64,000 bases of DNA from Thysanoteuthis rhombus. Lineage: Eukaryota > Mollusca > Cephalopoda > Oegopsida > Thysanoteuthidae. Shown here in pieces: positions 3,203 through 61,075 of this stretch (the first letter of the stretch is position 1; each line of letters opens with the position of its first letter). The translations under genes were made by a program, and so were the position numbers. The notes beneath the pieces are model-generated. The model had not been told where the DNA came from. It saw only the letters and a program-made list of their open reading frames with translations, and ran no database searches. The stretch covers positions 7,090,297 to 7,154,296 of the forward strand of contig OY735237.1 of assembly GCA_963457665.1 (NCBI GenBank), given 5' to 3'.

Positions 3203-3318
3203 TATATGATGTCGTTGTTGAGCTCCAACAAGATGAAATGGATTTGTGTTGTGTATCTTATCTGATAGCTATTTTCCGTAGCTAGTAAAACATTGGTATA
3301 TAATAACTTTTTGAGTAT

Positions 3319-3351
3319 ATATATATATATATATTATATATATATATATAA
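3319..3351. repeat. (TA)n microsatellite
   Basis: TA run with one phase change. Confidence 0.85.
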
Positions 3352-3464
3352 AGTGAGGTAACTCATCCACTGTAAGCTTATGCAATGCTCTTCCATAGGA
3401 ATAGAGCACTCTGGTGGAAGAGGGATATCTGTGTAAACAAATATATCGCTTAAATTCTACCTTA

Positions 3465-3624
3465 CTGACTGTCCAGTTCCGCAGTTCAGAGGTAGGATAT
3501 CGGCCTGCGGGTCTGAAGTTAAGATTTCAATCCAGCCTCGTGGTACTGGATGGGACAATGGAAAGTCTATAGCCACACTGAAGAGATGTAATACATCGAA
3601 ACAGCTGTCTGTGGATGACACAAT

Positions 3625-3661
<37 letters not shown>
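3465..3661 (+). mobile_element. tRNA-derived SINE carrying a hammerhead ribozyme, copy 1
   Basis: From 5' to 3' this copy has a TCCAGT (3472-3477), an A-box-like GCAGTTCAGAGGTAGGATA, a B-box-like GATTTCAATCC (3523-3533) and the partner ACTGGA (3545-3550). A 20-odd base linker, a complete hammerhead motif (3573-3614) and a tail ATGACACAATTAC running into (TA)n follow. The A and B boxes suggest RNA polymerase III transcription from a tRNA-like head. The same order is seen at 38541-38705 and 50283-50418 on the other strand. It encodes no protein. It lies inside the pogo-like element of 2871-4210. Confidence 0.7.
3573..3614 (+). ncRNA. Hammerhead ribozyme, type I with short stem III
   Basis: Stem I is CCACA (3573-3577) with UGUGG (3610-3614). 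The core CUGAAGA (3578-3584) fits CUGANGA. Stem II is GAUGU/ACAUC around AAU, then GAA and A15.1. Stem III is only A-U and C-G around the loop AGCU, and U16.1 C17 gives a GUC cleavage site after 3609. Every invariant core base is present. Such two-base-pair stem III hammerheads are known from Penelope-like elements and animal retrozymes, where they act best as dimers. Confidence 0.75.
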
Positions 3662-7925: not shown

Positions 7926-8021
7926 AGGTATAGTTTTAAACTCTGGGTCACAAACCCTCTAATTATATTTTGGTTAAACGCAGAAGGTGGCAGGTGTAAT
8001 GGTATCCAGTCGCATCACATT

Positions 8022-8225
8022 TGACAGACCGGTCCTCGTATGATTACCGAAGCTAAGCAACGTCGAGCCAGGTCAGTCGATAAGTGACCAATTGGTTATA
8101 CCAGGTGCTGCATGTCTCCCGTGGCGATTCGTCAATCATCCTAAGGAGAACACCGATCTCGAGACTACGCCCAGTAACCCACCCATTGAATCCTTTAAAT
8201 GGCCAGGCTGCGAACGACAAGAAAT
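8022..8225 (+). mobile_element. 5S-rRNA-derived SINE, copy A
   Basis: The head (about 8030-8110) matches the 3' two thirds of 5S rRNA: ACCGAAGCTAAGCAACGTC, GAGCCAGGTCAG and ATACCAGGTGCTG. The body contains CGTGGCGATTCG and GGAGAACACCGATCTCGAGA and ends GGCCAGGCTGCGAACGAC before an A-rich tail. The first 40 or so bases of 5S are missing, so it is not a working rRNA gene, though 5S internal promoter blocks remain. The body recurs in the other copies. Confidence 0.7.
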
Positions 8226-15079: not shown

Positions 15080-16231
15080 GTGTCAATTATACTTGATGCT
15101 AATTGGTTGATTGACCTATTAGGAAAATCTGTAGGTTTTCTTATAAATTTCGATTGGGAGTAATTGGAAAAAATAGGGGTTAATTTTTTGTAATCCTCAA
15201 AACGTTTGGTCAGAATTACAAAATAACAAAACTGTTGGAAAAAAAACTTAGATACCTAGAACCCGTTCTATTTTAATAAAATACAGGAAATAATTGAAAA
15301 AATAAAAACAGTTCTTGGACAAACAAAAATAACGTAAAGGTTGTCCTGAAAAATAAGGTTTAACTGTGCAGCATGCAACAATGCAAAAATAAAATAGACA
15401 AAATAAAAGATTTCAAAATATTATAGAATCTTTCTCTTTGTTGATTTAAAACCCTCAAGAAATCTTTTGTAGCAGTATTAAAAGAAGCGAAAGAAAGGTA
15501 TTGCTTCTTTTCGACTTATATTATTTATTACTATAAAAATCTAAATTATTAATAATCCTATTCTTCGTGTGACATATGGTACAAAATAAAATCACAGCAA
15601 AACCTTTATTCATTCAAATTTACAAAAGAAAGCTGCGTTTTTGTCTGTACCCCAAGGTAGGCCGTAGGGTTTAACAGTCAAAACGTCTTGTAAAAAAGAA
15701 GAACCAAGATAAGGACAACGGACCTGAAAGATCTTTGAAATCGAACTGTGTGTCAGCGATTAAATAATGGGGGAAATACATATTCAGATAAGAAAAGCAG
15801 CCCAACGTATTTGTTTGATGAGAAAATAAAACTGTTCAAGTGTTTCTGTTCTCCAATATCTTAGTTGTTCTGTTCTACCTGTCGTTTTGGCAGGGATTAT
15901 CCCCACCTCTATGTTCTTCAAGATGGCTCCCCAGGAAGTCAGCATATTTCAATAACACCGTGAGACTGGAATAACCTTTCTAACCCTTCCAAAATAGGTA
16001 TCATTAGGAACTACTTACCCCGATAAGAAACAAACAGGATGTTTGATTTGACAAGAAATTTGGAATTTATGTAATTTTCTCATTCGGGCATTCGATTTTT
16101 CTACAAAGTCTGTATTATATCCATCAAGCAATCAGAATCTTAGGCCGCACTGAGAAATGTAAATTCTCAATTGACTAATAGATAAACACAACATAAAGAC
16201 AACACACAACGTTCCAGCCAAATAGTATGGG
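15080..16231. other. No gene seen
   Basis: AT-rich. A GTAGGCCGTAGGG plus CAAAACGTC block at about 15655-15690 may be one more hammerhead-like relic. Confidence 0.35.
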
Positions 16232-16418
16232 ATGCACTGGTTCTTGGGGGGGGGGGTCACCGAAGCCAAGCAACGCCGAGTCTAGTCATTACCTAGATGG
16301 GTGATCATCTAGGAACACCAGGTGCTGTTAGCAAATTCGGATCATGTAAGTTAATCTAATCTTCCTGAGAAGATCAATTTCTACTCAACGCTCAATAATA
16401 CAATCCAAAACCTCCTCT
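16232..16418 (+). mobile_element. 5S-rRNA-derived SINE, copy B (first unit of a dimer)
   Basis: The head ACCGAAGCCAAGCAACGCC, AGATGGGTGATCATCTAGG and ACACCAGGTGCTG is clearly 5S-like. A G-run interrupts its start. The body runs into a second 5S head at about 16419 without the usual GGCTGCAAACGAC end, giving a head-to-tail dimer. Confidence 0.65.
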
Positions 16419-22300: not shown

Positions 22301-22914
22301 CAGTTCATCAGTTGAGCTTCGCTAATCCAAGCTAGAACAAAGATGGGTGACAATTGGGGACATTATAATTTACAACTGAAGAGGGTGGTAGAGATAAATT
22401 GGCCTGAACGTTGGGTGCACATCGAAGGTGAAAAGAAGAGGCTAAATTGTCTGAAACAAAGATGGTGTATTAATGACTCCTCTCAAAGTCATAGACAAAT
22501 ATTCAACGCAACAAAATGAGCACATCTTCTGCTCAGTGCCTCAAGGAAGAAACATTGTCTTGCGCTTAGTCTATTTATATCAACATGGAATGGATGATGT
22601 GCATCAAAGACAATAAGCGAAATGCCACAAGACGCACACGTGCGCCGTGTAGTAGATAACGTGTTCCTAGTTTCAAACTGGAAAATCAAAAAATAATTTG
22701 GTTGGTTGGATTACGAAAGAGAACAGCTTTTTCTGGCAATTATTCATTCAGGACCGATCACCTTCTGTCACCACGATTTGGTGGTTCAATCCACCGCCTA
22801 GTCATACAAAAGACTTTAAAATAGTACTCAATGCCTCTCCAGTAGGTGCTCAGCACAAGGAGTAGAATTGAGGAACCTCTCCTCAAGACTAAGAACTTAC
22901 GGTCAAGTTCACGC

Positions 22915-23105
22915 TGGGTTCATCAGTTCTCGTAAGATCGCTGGGGTTAAGCAACGAGGGGCCTGGTCAGTACCAGGACGGGTGACCATTGGGGAACATC
23001 AGGTGCCATAAGCAGAACAAAGCTCCGACCAGCCTGGCAAGTCGGAAGTGGATCTCACTAACAATTGCCCGTGTGTACCAAAGCCCGCAACACCTTCGAT
23101 AAGGC
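22915..23105 (+). mobile_element. 5S-rRNA-derived SINE with a different body, copy D
   Basis: The head TCTCGTAAGATCGCTGGGG, TTAAGCAACGAGGGGCCTGG and GACGGGTGACCATTGGGGAA is the most 5S-like of all. The following body (GACCAGCCTGGCAAGTCGG, GCCCGTGTGTACCAAAGCC) does not match copies A, C and E, so it may be a second subfamily or a separate 5S pseudogene. Confidence 0.6.
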
Positions 23106-38538: not shown

Positions 38539-38540
38539 CA

Positions 38541-38705
38541 TTGTGTCATCCACAGACAGCTGTTTCGTTGTATTACAACTCTTCAGAGTGGCTATAGACT
38601 ATCTTTTATCTCATCCAGTACCACGAAGCAGGATCGAAACCTTAGCTTCAGACCCGGAGACTGGTATCCTCCTCTACCCCACGGAACTGGACGGTCAGAG
38701 AGGTT
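38541..38705 (-). mobile_element. tRNA-derived SINE carrying a hammerhead ribozyme, copy 2
   Basis: On the minus strand this copy has TCCAGT (38691-38686), an A-box-like region (38684-38665), a B box GGTTTCGATCC (38641-38631), ACTGGA (38619-38614) and a hammerhead (38591-38550). It ends in TGACACAATGA and a long (TA)n tract at 38538-38470. It matches the copy at 3465 over its whole length with scattered substitutions. It lies in the intron between the LDLa and CUB exons of the membrane-protein gene. Confidence 0.7.
38550..38591 (-). ncRNA. Hammerhead ribozyme, second copy
   Basis: The core CUGAAGA, stem II GUUGU/ACAAC around AAU, GAAA, the two-pair stem III with loop AGCU and the GUC site are all intact. 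Stem I is CCACU against UGUGG, so the pair next to the core is a U-U mismatch. Relative to the copy at 3573, stem II differs at both partners of one pair (A-U there, U-A here), which keeps the helix. Confidence 0.7.
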
Positions 38706-39065
38706 GATTCTGCACGTGTTTCATGGTTTATCCATTTTTCAAAAGTGGTTAAAAATATTTTGCATTAGACCAATAAAAAACAGTTTTGGTCGATGGTTAC
38801 TGATAAAGGTGTCTAAAAGATGACTTTCGAATCACCGTGGTCCCCAAAAATTGGCTGACCAACCAGTCAAGAGGCCTACAGATTCCTCTCTCTTTGCACA
38901 TCTGTATGACTGTGTGTCTTTGGTACTCCTGATAAAATTGTTTTGGGCTACAACCATGAAATTGTGCTTGAGTACACCATGAGACATCTCCTGAAAACGT
39001 TTTTCCCCCCAAAAAGTGCTTTTTAGGGTCATATTGGACCAACGATACCCAAATTTTGTGCTGGT

Positions 39066-43954: not shown

Positions 43955-44505
43955 CATCATCATCATCAGTCTTTTAGCGTCCGTTGTTGGACATAGACCT
44001 TCCCCAGGATTTGCCACACTTCTCTATCATGGGCGTCGCGGAGCCAGTACTTCCTGAACTTGTCTAGCTCGTCTCTCCATCTAATATTCTGCCAGCCTCG
44101 GTTGCACGTGATCTCGGGGGATCCAATGTCGTGAGTCGTGATGTCCATCGGTTGTCTGCCATTCTTGCAACATGGCCAGCCCACCGCCATTTGAGATTTT
44201 TAATGGATTCTATGATGTCCCTAACTCTTGTCTTTTCTCGGATGTACTGTGCTGTCTTGTGGTCTCTCCATGTTAGGCCCAGCATAATTCTTTCATGTGC
44301 GCGTTGCATGGTTCTCAATTTACGGGTCTGTCTCTTGGTTAGGTTCCATGTTTCAGCTCCATAAGTGACTATTGGGAGGATGCGTTGGTTATACACCCTT
44401 CTCTTGAGGATTAATGGGATCTTGGTATTTTTGAAGGTTGAGCTTGCTCTGCCAAAGGCTTGCCATCCTAGTGTGATTCTTCACTTGATTTCTTCTACAT
44501 TTCAT
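43955..44505 (-). pseudogene. RTE-like LINE, C-terminal part of ORF2
   Basis: The minus strand encodes YGAETWNLTKRQ, RAHERIMLGLTWRD, IREKTRVRDII and LKWRWAGHVARM-DNRWTSR in order. After a frameshift near 44190 it continues through QNIRWRDELDKF to the end. The RWAGHVARM and YGAETW motifs are characteristic of RTE-type and related non-LTR retrotransposons, downstream of the reverse-transcriptase core. The 3' end is a (GAT)n run, a simple-repeat tail as in RTE elements. The element is 5' truncated and broken, so it is dead. Fragments of the same family are at 1-55, 10929-11475 and 41990-42340. Confidence 0.75.
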
Positions 44506-48195: not shown

Positions 48196-48411
48196 ATTTC
48201 TACTATTATTCGGACTATCCTCATCTTGGTTGTTTTTCATACAACGTTTCGGCCGTTGTACACTACGGCCTTCATCAGGTATCATCTAGTAGGTGTGGGG
48301 AAGTAACGAACCGAACCTTTTATTTAACCGACAGGGTATATTTTTTTACAACGGCCGAAACGTTGTATGAAAAACAACCAAGATGAAGATAGTCCGAATA
48401 ATAATAGAAAT
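48196..48411. mobile_element. Palindromic hammerhead-like repeat (Penelope-like terminal repeat pair)
   Basis: Two 64-base arms, 48196-48259 and 48348-48411, are inverted copies with only two mismatches. Each contains ACAACGGCCGAAACGTTGT. On the minus strand the left arm continues upstream into CCTGATGAAGGCCGTAG (48279 leftward), giving a CUGAUGA core, a GGCCGU/ACGGCC stem II, GAAAC and a short stem III ending in GUA. One extra A separates the core from stem II, so activity is uncertain. The right arm lacks its core half. Inverted partial copies of this kind are typical of Penelope-like elements; no Penelope protein is visible. Confidence 0.5.
48240..48279 (-). ncRNA. Hammerhead-like motif with GGCC stem II
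   Basis: The order is CUGAUGA, one extra A, GGCCGU, an eight-base loop, ACGGCC, GAAAC, GUU, GUA. The fold is hammerhead-like, but the extra A and an unpaired stem I make it a relic or a variant rather than a canonical ribozyme. Confidence 0.45.
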
Positions 48412-48469
48412 AATAATAATACCTCATCTCAAAAATTCAGAGAAACAAATAAATGCCACACCCTCGGGA

Positions 48470-50282: not shown

Positions 50283-50418
50283 TAACTGTCATCCACATCA
50301 ACTGTTTCGTTGTATTACAGACTCTCCAACATCCAATACCACGAGGTAGGATCGGAAACTTCGCTTTAAACCCAGAGGCAGACATTTTACCCCTGCTCTA
50401 CGGGGAACTGGACGATCG
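50283..50418 (-). mobile_element. tRNA-derived SINE with decayed hammerhead, copy 3
   Basis: The order is the same as in the other two copies, on the minus strand: TCCAGT near 50412, an A-box-like TAGAGCAGGGGTAAAATG, a B-box-like GTTTCCGATCC and ATTGGA near 50332. A damaged hammerhead follows in which GAAAC and part of stem II survive but CUGANGA has become GGAGAGU. An AT-rich tail follows on the left. A 26-base inverted repeat (50143-50168 with 50655-50680) flanks the copy at a distance. Confidence 0.55.
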
Positions 50419-50554
50419 GTGGGATGAAACTATTCATATTTACTATTCAGAGTTGGAAGATCATTGCATTTGTATATATGTGTGTGTGAGTATATCAATT
50501 ACATTAACAATTACTGCGAAATTTTAGTGAGTAAAGCTATAAAGCTTTCTAGAT

Positions 50555-60369: not shown

Positions 60370-61075
60370 AGGCCCAGGACCCTAACATAGGATCCGTTCT
60401 GTGATTGAGTCAAGTCAGCCTCAAGGTTCTCGTGGTATCAGTTGCAGGAACCAAGCAAATCCTTAGCAACGCCTGTGCACATGCGTGCAGAACCCCAATT
60501 GAACTTGACCTTCTGTCATATTTGCTGTCGTGGGAAAACGAACATATAAACAACTTTTTAGCTAAAACCAAAGCATGGCATCTCTTATCGGCTTAACATC
60601 AGATACCTCTCCGATGTTGTGTCAACAAAAGAAAACAATTTATTTTAAATGTAAAACGGTGTTATTTTTCTTGGCGTTAAGGACCCTGATCCACACCCTA
60701 GTCGATACGAGTCCATTCTTATATTTCAACGCGACAACGCAGTAAGTGTAAGAGTTAGAGTTAGGAACAAGTCTGCAATAACTGTGTTGATCTGTAAAAT
60801 ATCCTAGTCCACACATCGAGGACGTACCAGATATCAAGCTGATAAGAGCATCACTTTGCTCTTAGCTAAAAGGTCGAGTTTATTTATTTACATATCCACG
60901 ACAGCAAATGTGACACAAGGTTAGAACCCATGGTTAAGTTTTAGGTGGGGTCCTGCATGCAAACGTGCTGGCATAGGGTGCAAAAGACCAAAAATCTTCG
61001 ACTGATGTTATGAGAACATTGGGATAGGCTTGGTTTGGTCACAGGATGAACCCTGTGCGAGCTCTCAAGACCGAC
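60370..61075. repeat. Inverted repeat around the fibronectin-like ORF
   Basis: The left arm (about 60370-60540) and right arm (about 60890-61075) match in inverted order: CATATTTGCTGTCGTGG, GCATGCxxGxACCCC, AGGTTCTCGTGGTATCAGTT and GGATCCGTTCTGTGA blocks. Divergence is substantial. It lies in the first long intron of the membrane-protein gene. Confidence 0.45.
60640..60837 (-). CDS. Unassigned small ORF, fibronectin-III-like strand pattern, possible alternative exon
   Basis: The minus-strand frame contains YCRLVPNSNSYTYCVVALK followed by NGLVSTRVWIRVL. That resembles the F and G strands of a fibronectin type III or Ig-like domain. An acceptor-like ATATTTTACAG lies within it at about 60798. 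Using it, the frame would fit the phase-1 donor of the signal-peptide exon 430 bases upstream, giving a short secreted product ending at a TAA that overlaps an AATAAA. No phase-matched donor was seen that would lead on to the CUB exon. The ORF lies in the loop of a long inverted repeat (about 60370-61075), so it may instead belong to a mobile element. Confidence 0.25.
   Translation of the reverse strand: MISGTSSMCGLGYFTDQHSYCRLVPNSNSYTYCVVALKYKNGLVSTRVWIRVLNAKKNNTVLHLK

What the first reader, a model, noticed from the sequence alone, without database searches (positions are those of the whole stretch)
3465..3661. A tRNA-derived SINE that carries a complete hammerhead ribozyme at its 3' end
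Three copies (3465-3661 plus; 38705-38541 and 50418-50283 minus) share the same order: TCCAGT, A-box-like, B-box-like, ACTGGA, hammerhead, short tail, TA-rich tract. The hammerhead at 3573-3614 satisfies CUGANGA, G10.1-C11.1, GAA, A15.1-U16.1 and a GUC site, with stem I CCACA/UGUGG and a two-pair stem III. Hammerheads in Schistosoma SINE-like repeats, Penelope-like elements and retrozymes are known; a pol III tRNA-type head joined to a minimal-stem-III hammerhead and a TA tail in this lineage may be a new family or a new variant of a known one.
Basis: partly seen in the sequence, partly recalled or inferred. Interest (0 to 1): 0.87.

Follow-up and report, generated by a model that had tools for sequence, protein, structure and literature searches.

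The report
Hammerhead retrozyme family in cephalopod-like genome
A short jumping element present in tens of thousands of copies in this animal genome carries a self-cutting RNA motif, a worn tRNA-like stretch and sits in TA repeats; it looks like a new example of a known kind of ribozyme-bearing element, and the fixed position of its ends hints at what kind of enzyme moves it.

Summary
The repeat and its hammerhead are real, but the anatomy differs from the description. Copy 1 spans 3350-3624 and belongs to a unit of about 313 nt that starts upstream of the tRNA-like part. Genome-wide the hammerhead (32-mer, up to 3 mismatches) occurs 35,766 times against 0 for the reversed pattern. A junction joining one unit's 3' end directly to the next unit occurs 2,523 times against 0. 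Tandem short units with a type I hammerhead whose palindromic stem III suggests dimer action fit the published metazoan non-LTR retrozymes; a tRNA-bearing precedent is in print (Schistosoma Sm-alpha).

Two of the three window copies keep a full hammerhead; copy 3 lacks its 5' half. The tRNA-like part is worn: no Rfam tRNA or default ARAGORN hit, modest similarity to tRNA-Arg. TA tracts flank both sides in 28 of 66 copies, so they look at least partly like target rather than tail.

82 of 84 matches end within 4 positions of one site, 15 nt past the predicted cut, not at it. This resembles internal initiation by Penelope-like elements, which are abundant here. No sequence link to the Penelope copies examined was found. 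Cleavage and circles are untested.

The parts
3350..3624 (+). Copy 1 of the retrozyme-like unit (5'-truncated, 275 of ~313 nt), subfamily 1
   Evidence: profile-HMM match, model 29-303 (same range); in the genome 39 other scored copies at 91-94% over 3465-3635
3316..3350 (.). TA microsatellite on the 5' side of copy 1 (likely target sequence)
   Evidence: TRF and sequence
3472..3550 (+). tRNA-Arg-like stretch bounded by TCCAGT/ACTGGA, with an A-box-like and a worn B-box-like motif
   Evidence: sequence; no Rfam tRNA or default ARAGORN hit; relaxed ARAGORN and box scan above shuffles; alignment of the subfamily sequences to a remembered tRNA-Arg
3565..3567 (+). Outer stem I 5' strand GTC, pairs with GAC 3617-3619 across an internal loop
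   Evidence: 96.0% of cells paired in the alignment
3573..3614 (+). Type I hammerhead: stem I CCACA/TGTGG, CTGAAGA, stem II GATGT/ACATC, GAAA, palindromic CAGCTG, GTC; predicted cut 3609/3610
3610..3624 (+). 15 nt from the predicted cut to the shared 3' terminus GACACAAT, proposed start of reverse transcription
   Evidence: 68 of 84 matches end exactly here and 82 of 84 within 4 positions
3628..3661 (.). TA microsatellite on the 3' side of copy 1
   Evidence: TRF
38540..38711 (-). Copy 2, subfamily 2, 5'-truncated, complete hammerhead (stem II GTTGT/ACAAC)
50287..50477 (-). Copy 3, diverged, hammerhead 5' half (stem I strand and CUGANGA) missing
48202..48450 (.). Inverted pseudo-LTR pair of a Penelope-like element with its own minimal hammerhead: candidate class of autonomous partner, not part of the repeat
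   Evidence: same kind of hammerhead at Penelope loci L073, L075, L078, L079, L080

Best explanation
It is a metazoan non-LTR retrozyme: a short retroelement unit of about 313 nt with a type I, dimer-type hammerhead and a degenerate tRNA-Arg-like module. Tandem copies are transcribed; hammerheads of adjacent units cut the multimer at GUC, using the palindromic CAGCUG to act as pairs; units are circularised by a host ligase or used as uncut multimers. A reverse transcriptase acting in trans, most likely of a Penelope-like element, starts internally at the AAT-rich site 15-22 nt past the cut, primed on nicked TA-rich DNA, and runs up to one turn or a little more, giving 5'-truncated monomers and partial tandems. 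Shown here: unit, tandem junctions, copy number, common 3' terminus, TA flanks, paired hammerhead. Inferred: transcription, cleavage, circles, ligase, Penelope partner. A working pol III promoter is possible but doubtful.
For: 35,766 motif places vs 0 control; 2,523 unit junctions vs 0; cut-to-cut 312-313 nt in 4 of 5 units; 82 of 84 matches end at 297-301 of a 301-position model, with 0-7 further nt matching the linker in 75 terminal copies. Stem cells paired 94.9% vs 91.9% shuffled, covariation 0.106 vs 0.066 (81 copies, 75 distinct). Stem II pair A-T in 32 of 34 subfamily-1 and T-A in 32 of 37 subfamily-2 copies when grouped outside the hammerhead, 11 more unassigned. A hammerhead-deleted form like that of L025 found at 8 places with a pattern of equal length and tolerance. 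TA tract >=8 nt within 30 nt in 67 of 82 3' flanks and 36 of 81 5' flanks vs 1.9% of 2,000 random window 30-mers. Penelope: 150 of 150 scored candidates (of 2,746) match; 5 of 8 fetched loci show a minimal hammerhead, and Penelope copies also end past their cut (47, 47, 49, 66, 78, 80 and 29 nt), as PMC11167929 (parts 1-2 of 4 and passages) reports in kind for an Anolis element.
Against: The Penelope copies fetched share no sequence with the unit (nhmmer on L073-L080: one hit, E = 0.36); the flanks seen at their 3' ends are not TA repeats; their ends are less uniform than the repeat's. In Anolis the hammerhead was not needed for insertion in vitro (PMC11167929). Only one stem pair covaries strongly, and it is a fixed difference between two subfamilies. 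The isolated monomer prefers another fold (-15.6 vs -8.5 kcal/mol for the hammerhead). Circular folds of five units are not unusually stable (z +0.1 to -2.1). No target-site duplication signal: 4.44 vs 4.41 permuted (41 copies). Two units of one tandem are not clearly more alike than units of different loci. Conservation of the hammerhead is inflated because copies were picked by matching it.
Confidence: 0.72

Rival explanations
1. An ordinary tRNA-derived SINE family mobilised by a LINE that shares its 3' end; the hammerhead-like sequence is a conserved recognition tail, and tandem copies arise by one copy inserting beside another.
For: The 3' end is constant; its last part varies less than the tRNA-like region, clearly in subfamily 1 (0.98 vs 0.85 major-letter frequency) and slightly in subfamily 2 (0.96 vs 0.94); a tRNA-Arg-like part exists; a TA-rich 3' tract without a 5' one in 27 of 66 copies; within-tandem identity is not clearly raised; nothing shows cleavage.
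Against: The homologous part upstream of the tRNA-like stretch and the shared linker at 2,523 junctions fit a circular or tandem template; no TSD signal; the stem II pair is kept through a double change between subfamilies. Of the 30 tail loci fetched, 28 carry the tRNA-like head and 2 (L029, L032) do not; their flanks were not searched for LINE coding sequence, so a LINE sharing the tail is not excluded.
Confidence: 0.15
2. A retrozyme moved by a non-Penelope enzyme (for example an RTE-type LINE) using the same circular or multimeric RNA.
For: An RTE-like reverse transcriptase remnant lies in the window (44064-44480; label recalled); TA flanks differ from the flanks of the Penelope copies seen; no shared sequence with those Penelope copies.
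Against: The RTE-like remnant is followed by a GAT repeat, not by the unit's 3' sequence; internal 3' ends past a hammerhead are described for a Penelope element (PMC11167929).
Confidence: 0.1
3. A decaying, mostly inactive family: the hammerhead is a relic and today's copies are neutral fossils.
For: Only 47 of 81 copies keep all tested core and stem features; mean between-locus identity 0.847 over 1,909 sampled pairs; no expression data.
Against: Three loci besides the window's own are identical to copy 1 over 78 nt of the tail. This concerns present activity, not identity.
Confidence: 0.03

Closest known systems
Metazoan non-LTR retrozymes (Cervera & de la Pena 2020, PMC7229834, parts 1-3 of 6 and passages)
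   Same: Type I hammerhead, units within ~170-400 nt, dimers and more in tandem, <50% G+C (0.44 here), Penelope elements with minimal hammerheads in the same genome.
   Different: Here most fetched loci show 5'-truncated monomers or partial tandems beside TA repeats; a tRNA-like module is present; 3' ends cluster 15 nt past the cut. Circular RNA not tested.
Schistosoma Sm-alpha / Sj-alpha hammerhead repeats (PMC2770079 passages; PMC4918200 section 10 and passages)
   Same: Hammerhead plus tRNA-derived sequence in a short repeat with >10,000 copies; called SINE-like and treated among putative retrozymes.
   Different: tRNA-Gln in the text there; worn tRNA-Arg-like here. Sequences were not compared.
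Newt/axolotl HHR_Amex1 retrozymes (PMC7229834)
   Same: Very weak helix III closed by a palindromic tetraloop; acts better as a dimer there.
   Different: 330-350 nt units; no tRNA module mentioned in the parts I read. Sequences were not compared.
Penelope-like elements with minimal hammerheads (PMC11167929, parts 1-2 of 4 and passages)
   Same: Hammerhead near the terminus, partial tandems, 3' ends past the cut, AT-rich targets.
   Different: They encode RT and endonuclease; their hammerhead in this genome (CTGACGA or CTGATGA ... GGCCGAAACGTT) has a different sequence.

Membership tests
Metazoan non-LTR retrozyme | Type I hammerhead core with intact stems | tested here: met
   (47 of 81 copies keep everything tested; Rfam score below the gathering threshold)
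Metazoan non-LTR retrozyme | Tandem units of ~150-450 bp with one hammerhead each | tested here: met
   2,523 junctions; 312-313 nt in 4 of 5 units; two junction pairs 310 and 295 bp apart among the 100 places listed. Single-unit copies are nevertheless the majority of fetched loci
Metazoan non-LTR retrozyme | No coding sequence, no LTR/PBS/PPT, low G+C | tested here: inconclusive
   G+C 0.44; a 313-nt unit has no room for a retrotransposon protein (inference); PBS/PPT not searched
Metazoan non-LTR retrozyme | Self-cleavage and circular RNA in tissue | not testable with these tools
   no RNA data held
Metazoan non-LTR retrozyme | Highly self-paired circular fold | tested here: inconclusive
   53-65% paired, z +0.1 to -2.1 in five units; the published units exceed 70% paired (PMC4918200)
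tRNA-derived SINE | tRNA-related head at the 5' end with A and B boxes | tested here: not met
   tRNA-like part is internal; no Rfam tRNA or default ARAGORN hit; neither subfamily sequence has an exact A box with a B box within 2 mismatches at tRNA spacing, subfamily 1 does within 3
tRNA-derived SINE | Target-site duplications from LINE machinery | tested here: inconclusive
   no signal in 41 copies, but TA targets hide them
Penelope-like element | RT and GIY-YIG coding region | tested here: not met
   unit is 313 nt cut to cut; it could only be a passenger

The most novel reading that the evidence does not exclude
A retrozyme family whose autonomous partner can be read from its insertion ends: a Penelope-encoded enzyme moves it in trans by internal initiation past the ribozyme cut on TA-rich targets, and a captured tRNA-Arg module supplied a pol III promoter, answering for one lineage both open points in PMC7761336 (no promoter, no known partner).
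Probability: 0.3. Interest if true: 0.75.

Novelty: new member of a known kind. Interest (0 to 1): 0.5.

Why it matters
PMC7761336 (passages read) says metazoan retrozymes seem to lack promoters and show no motif that betrays the enzyme that moves them. This family offers tens of thousands of copies with one shared 3' end offset from the ribozyme cut, TA flanks, partial tandems and co-resident Penelope elements, so the partner question becomes testable by genome mapping and in vitro priming. Print: 'hammerhead ribozyme' with 'cephalopod' found no paper in the library held; 'octopus' + 'SINE' + 'hammerhead' gave eight, of which I opened two by passages, the giant squid genome (PMC6962438, which lists 235 Hammerhead_1 hits) and PMC10886601. 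That library lacks most subscription journals, and four papers I asked for were not held, so this is weak evidence of novelty.

Tried and rejected
Functional tRNA fold: no Rfam tRNA match at E<=10, ARAGORN 0 genes in the window and 0 in 60 of the 65 loci; at 75% threshold 38 of 82 copies vs 176 of 820 shuffled sequences (recount; one search printed 40 of 85 and 821 because it counted two subfamily sequences and a closing line). Absence of TTTT as a sign of pol III selection: not significant (P 0.67-0.75). Unusual circular stability: not supported. Target-site duplications: no signal above permutation. GIY-YIG profile as a route to Penelope elements: 7 matches, one looks like a host SLX1-type gene (recalled label), the others I looked at weak. 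RTE-like remnant in the window as partner: its 3' end differs. Pfam scan of six window frames: nothing at E<=0.01. The double-hammerhead energy could not be evaluated across two strands; with a 12-A linker it is -29.8 against an MFE of -37.2 kcal/mol, versus -8.5 against -15.6 for the monomer.

Unanswered: whether a real tRNA-Arg gene of this genome is the source, and whether copy 3's deletion type has multiplied; both genome searches did not complete.

Full report
Source. The window is G000:C42:7090297-7154296 of an unnamed 2.73 Gb genome in 514 contigs. I take it to be a cephalopod, probably a squid: an inference from size, large contigs (those listed are 36.8-94.6 Mb; numbers up to C48 occur) and 5S- and U2-like sequences in the window, which the giant squid paper also reports in high copy (PMC6962438, passages). 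It was not tested further.

Observation. The three copies were read directly and aligned. Copy 1 has the hammerhead at the stated place with the stated core. Rfam's type I hammerhead model scores it 23.4 bits, E = 0.00098 in the 176-nt stretch but under the curated threshold of 34; whole-window scans do not list it. Copy 2 also has an intact core. Copy 3 lacks the 5' strand of stem I and CUGANGA.

Extent. Searching with copy 1 gave 2,451 candidates, 40 scored, the window's own included; the tail alone gave 380 candidates and 41 matches; copy 2 gave 5,315 candidates, 40 scored. Only the best candidates are scored, so the fetched copies are a selected sample. In 65 loci plus the window there are 88 profile matches (L001, L009 and L039, which repeat window copies, were dropped). 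The rebuilt model has 301 positions and 84 matches over 60 bits. Homology extends more than 100 nt upstream of the reported start. Of the 84, 68 end at position 301 and 82 at 297-301; 5' starts are scattered, 18 of them at position 2.

Tandem structure. A strict text pattern finds the junction in 10 of the 65 loci (L002, L010, L017, L040, L042, L046, L052, L056, L067, L068); L063 shows a variant by eye. Genome-wide the junction 23-mer with up to 2 mismatches occurs 1,238 + 1,285 = 2,523 times, the reversed control 0. Among the 100 places listed, two pairs lie 310 and 295 bp apart, so arrays of more than two exist but are not the rule there. In 7 of 7 tandem pairs both units lean to the same subfamily, weakly for L017's second unit (17 vs 12) and L063's (11 vs 16); the loci were picked with subfamily-specific queries, so this is not independent. 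Within-locus identity is not clearly higher than between loci (mean 0.847), so origin of both units in one event is not shown.

Hammerhead. The 32-nt motif with free letters at one stem II pair and up to 3 mismatches occurs 35,766 times, control 0. By eye, 95 of the 100 listed have A-T or T-A at the free pair. Grouping copies by 31 diagnostic columns outside the hammerhead, the pair is A-T in 32 of 34 (subfamily 1) and T-A in 32 of 37 with 2 more T-G (subfamily 2); 11 copies were unassigned. On 81 aligned copies (copy 3 left out of the 82 available) 94.9% of stem cells pair. The subfamily sequences differ at 33 of 259 columns outside and 2 of 42 inside the hammerhead, but there the groups were defined by the stem II letters, so that comparison is partly circular; one search is the independent one. 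A pattern for the deletion seen in L025 finds 8 places, 2 of them within 1 mismatch, so that hammerhead-less form has not multiplied; copy 3's deletion type could not be counted.

Fold. Stem III is A15.1-U16.1 and C-G closed by the palindrome AGCU, the arrangement PMC7229834 describes for axolotl HHR_Amex1, which works better as a dimer. Computed energies agree with weak monomer folding. CAGCTG is exact in 65 of 81 copies.

tRNA-like part. No covariance or default ARAGORN match. At a relaxed threshold 38 of 82 copies match vs 176 of 820 shuffles, often as tRNA-Arg; an exact A box plus B box within 2 mismatches in 6 of 82 vs 0 of 820. The subfamily 2 sequence aligns with a remembered tRNA-Arg better than 1,000 of 1,000 shuffles, subfamily 1 better than 924. 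So tRNA ancestry is likely, a working promoter uncertain.

Flanks and ends. TA tracts of 8 nt or more lie within 30 nt in 67 of 82 3' flanks and 36 of 81 5' flanks, against 1.9% of 2,000 random 30-mers of the window. Of 66 terminal copies 28 have TA on both sides, 27 only 3', 6 only 5', 5 neither; the 3'-only class leaves room for a TA tail made during insertion. No TSD signal. The 3' terminus lies 15 nt past the predicted cut, with 0-7 further nt matching the linker in 75 terminal copies. An RNA ended by cleavage at the ribozyme site could not give this terminus unless religated.

Partner. A remembered Penelope RT consensus matched in 150 of 150 scored candidates out of 2,746, best E 1.3e-25, many with long open frames. 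L079 and L080 match RVT_1. Five of eight loci (L073, L075, L078, L079, L080) show a minimal hammerhead with full CTGANGA; L076 has its 3' part; none was seen in L074 and L077. Measured against the L079 frame start, Penelope copies end 47 nt (L079, window minus copy), 49 (L078), 66 (L073), 78 (window plus copy), 80 (L080) and 29 nt (L076) past the cut; L075 runs off the locus. PMC11167929 reports internal initiation at two sites, AT-rich targets, and that the hammerhead was not required. The likeness in kind is close, but the ends here are more varied and the sequences are unrelated, so the partner stays an inference.

Verdict. A metazoan non-LTR retrozyme with a worn tRNA-Arg-like module; a new member of a known kind, with Schistosoma Sm-alpha as tRNA-bearing precedent (PMC4918200 section 10; PMC2770079 passages). 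Its interest lies in the end offset, TA flanks and the testable Penelope link.

Noticed in passing
window 48202-48450: Head-to-head inverted pseudo-LTRs of a Penelope-like element with a minimal hammerhead; Rfam's permissive scan reported the stretch as MIR7533, probably because of the inverted repeat.
   Followed up: partly
window 8002-8116, 16211-16333, 22895-23014 (+): Three 5S rRNA-like sequences (41.3, 36.3 and 58 bits; the second just under the gathering score of 38), likely 5S-derived retroposons.
   Followed up: no
window 60720-60883 (-): U2 snRNA-like sequence (36.3 bits, below the gathering score of 46).
   Followed up: no
window 44064-44480 (-): RTE-like reverse transcriptase remnant (label recalled; no Pfam hit) followed by a GAT repeat.
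   Followed up: partly
L024, L044, L052, L063: These 3-kb loci hold copies of the repeat in both orientations; L037 holds three matches in one orientation.
   Followed up: no
G000:C29 47.6-50.6 Mb: Eight of the 150 listed Penelope RT matches lie within about 3 Mb.
   Followed up: no
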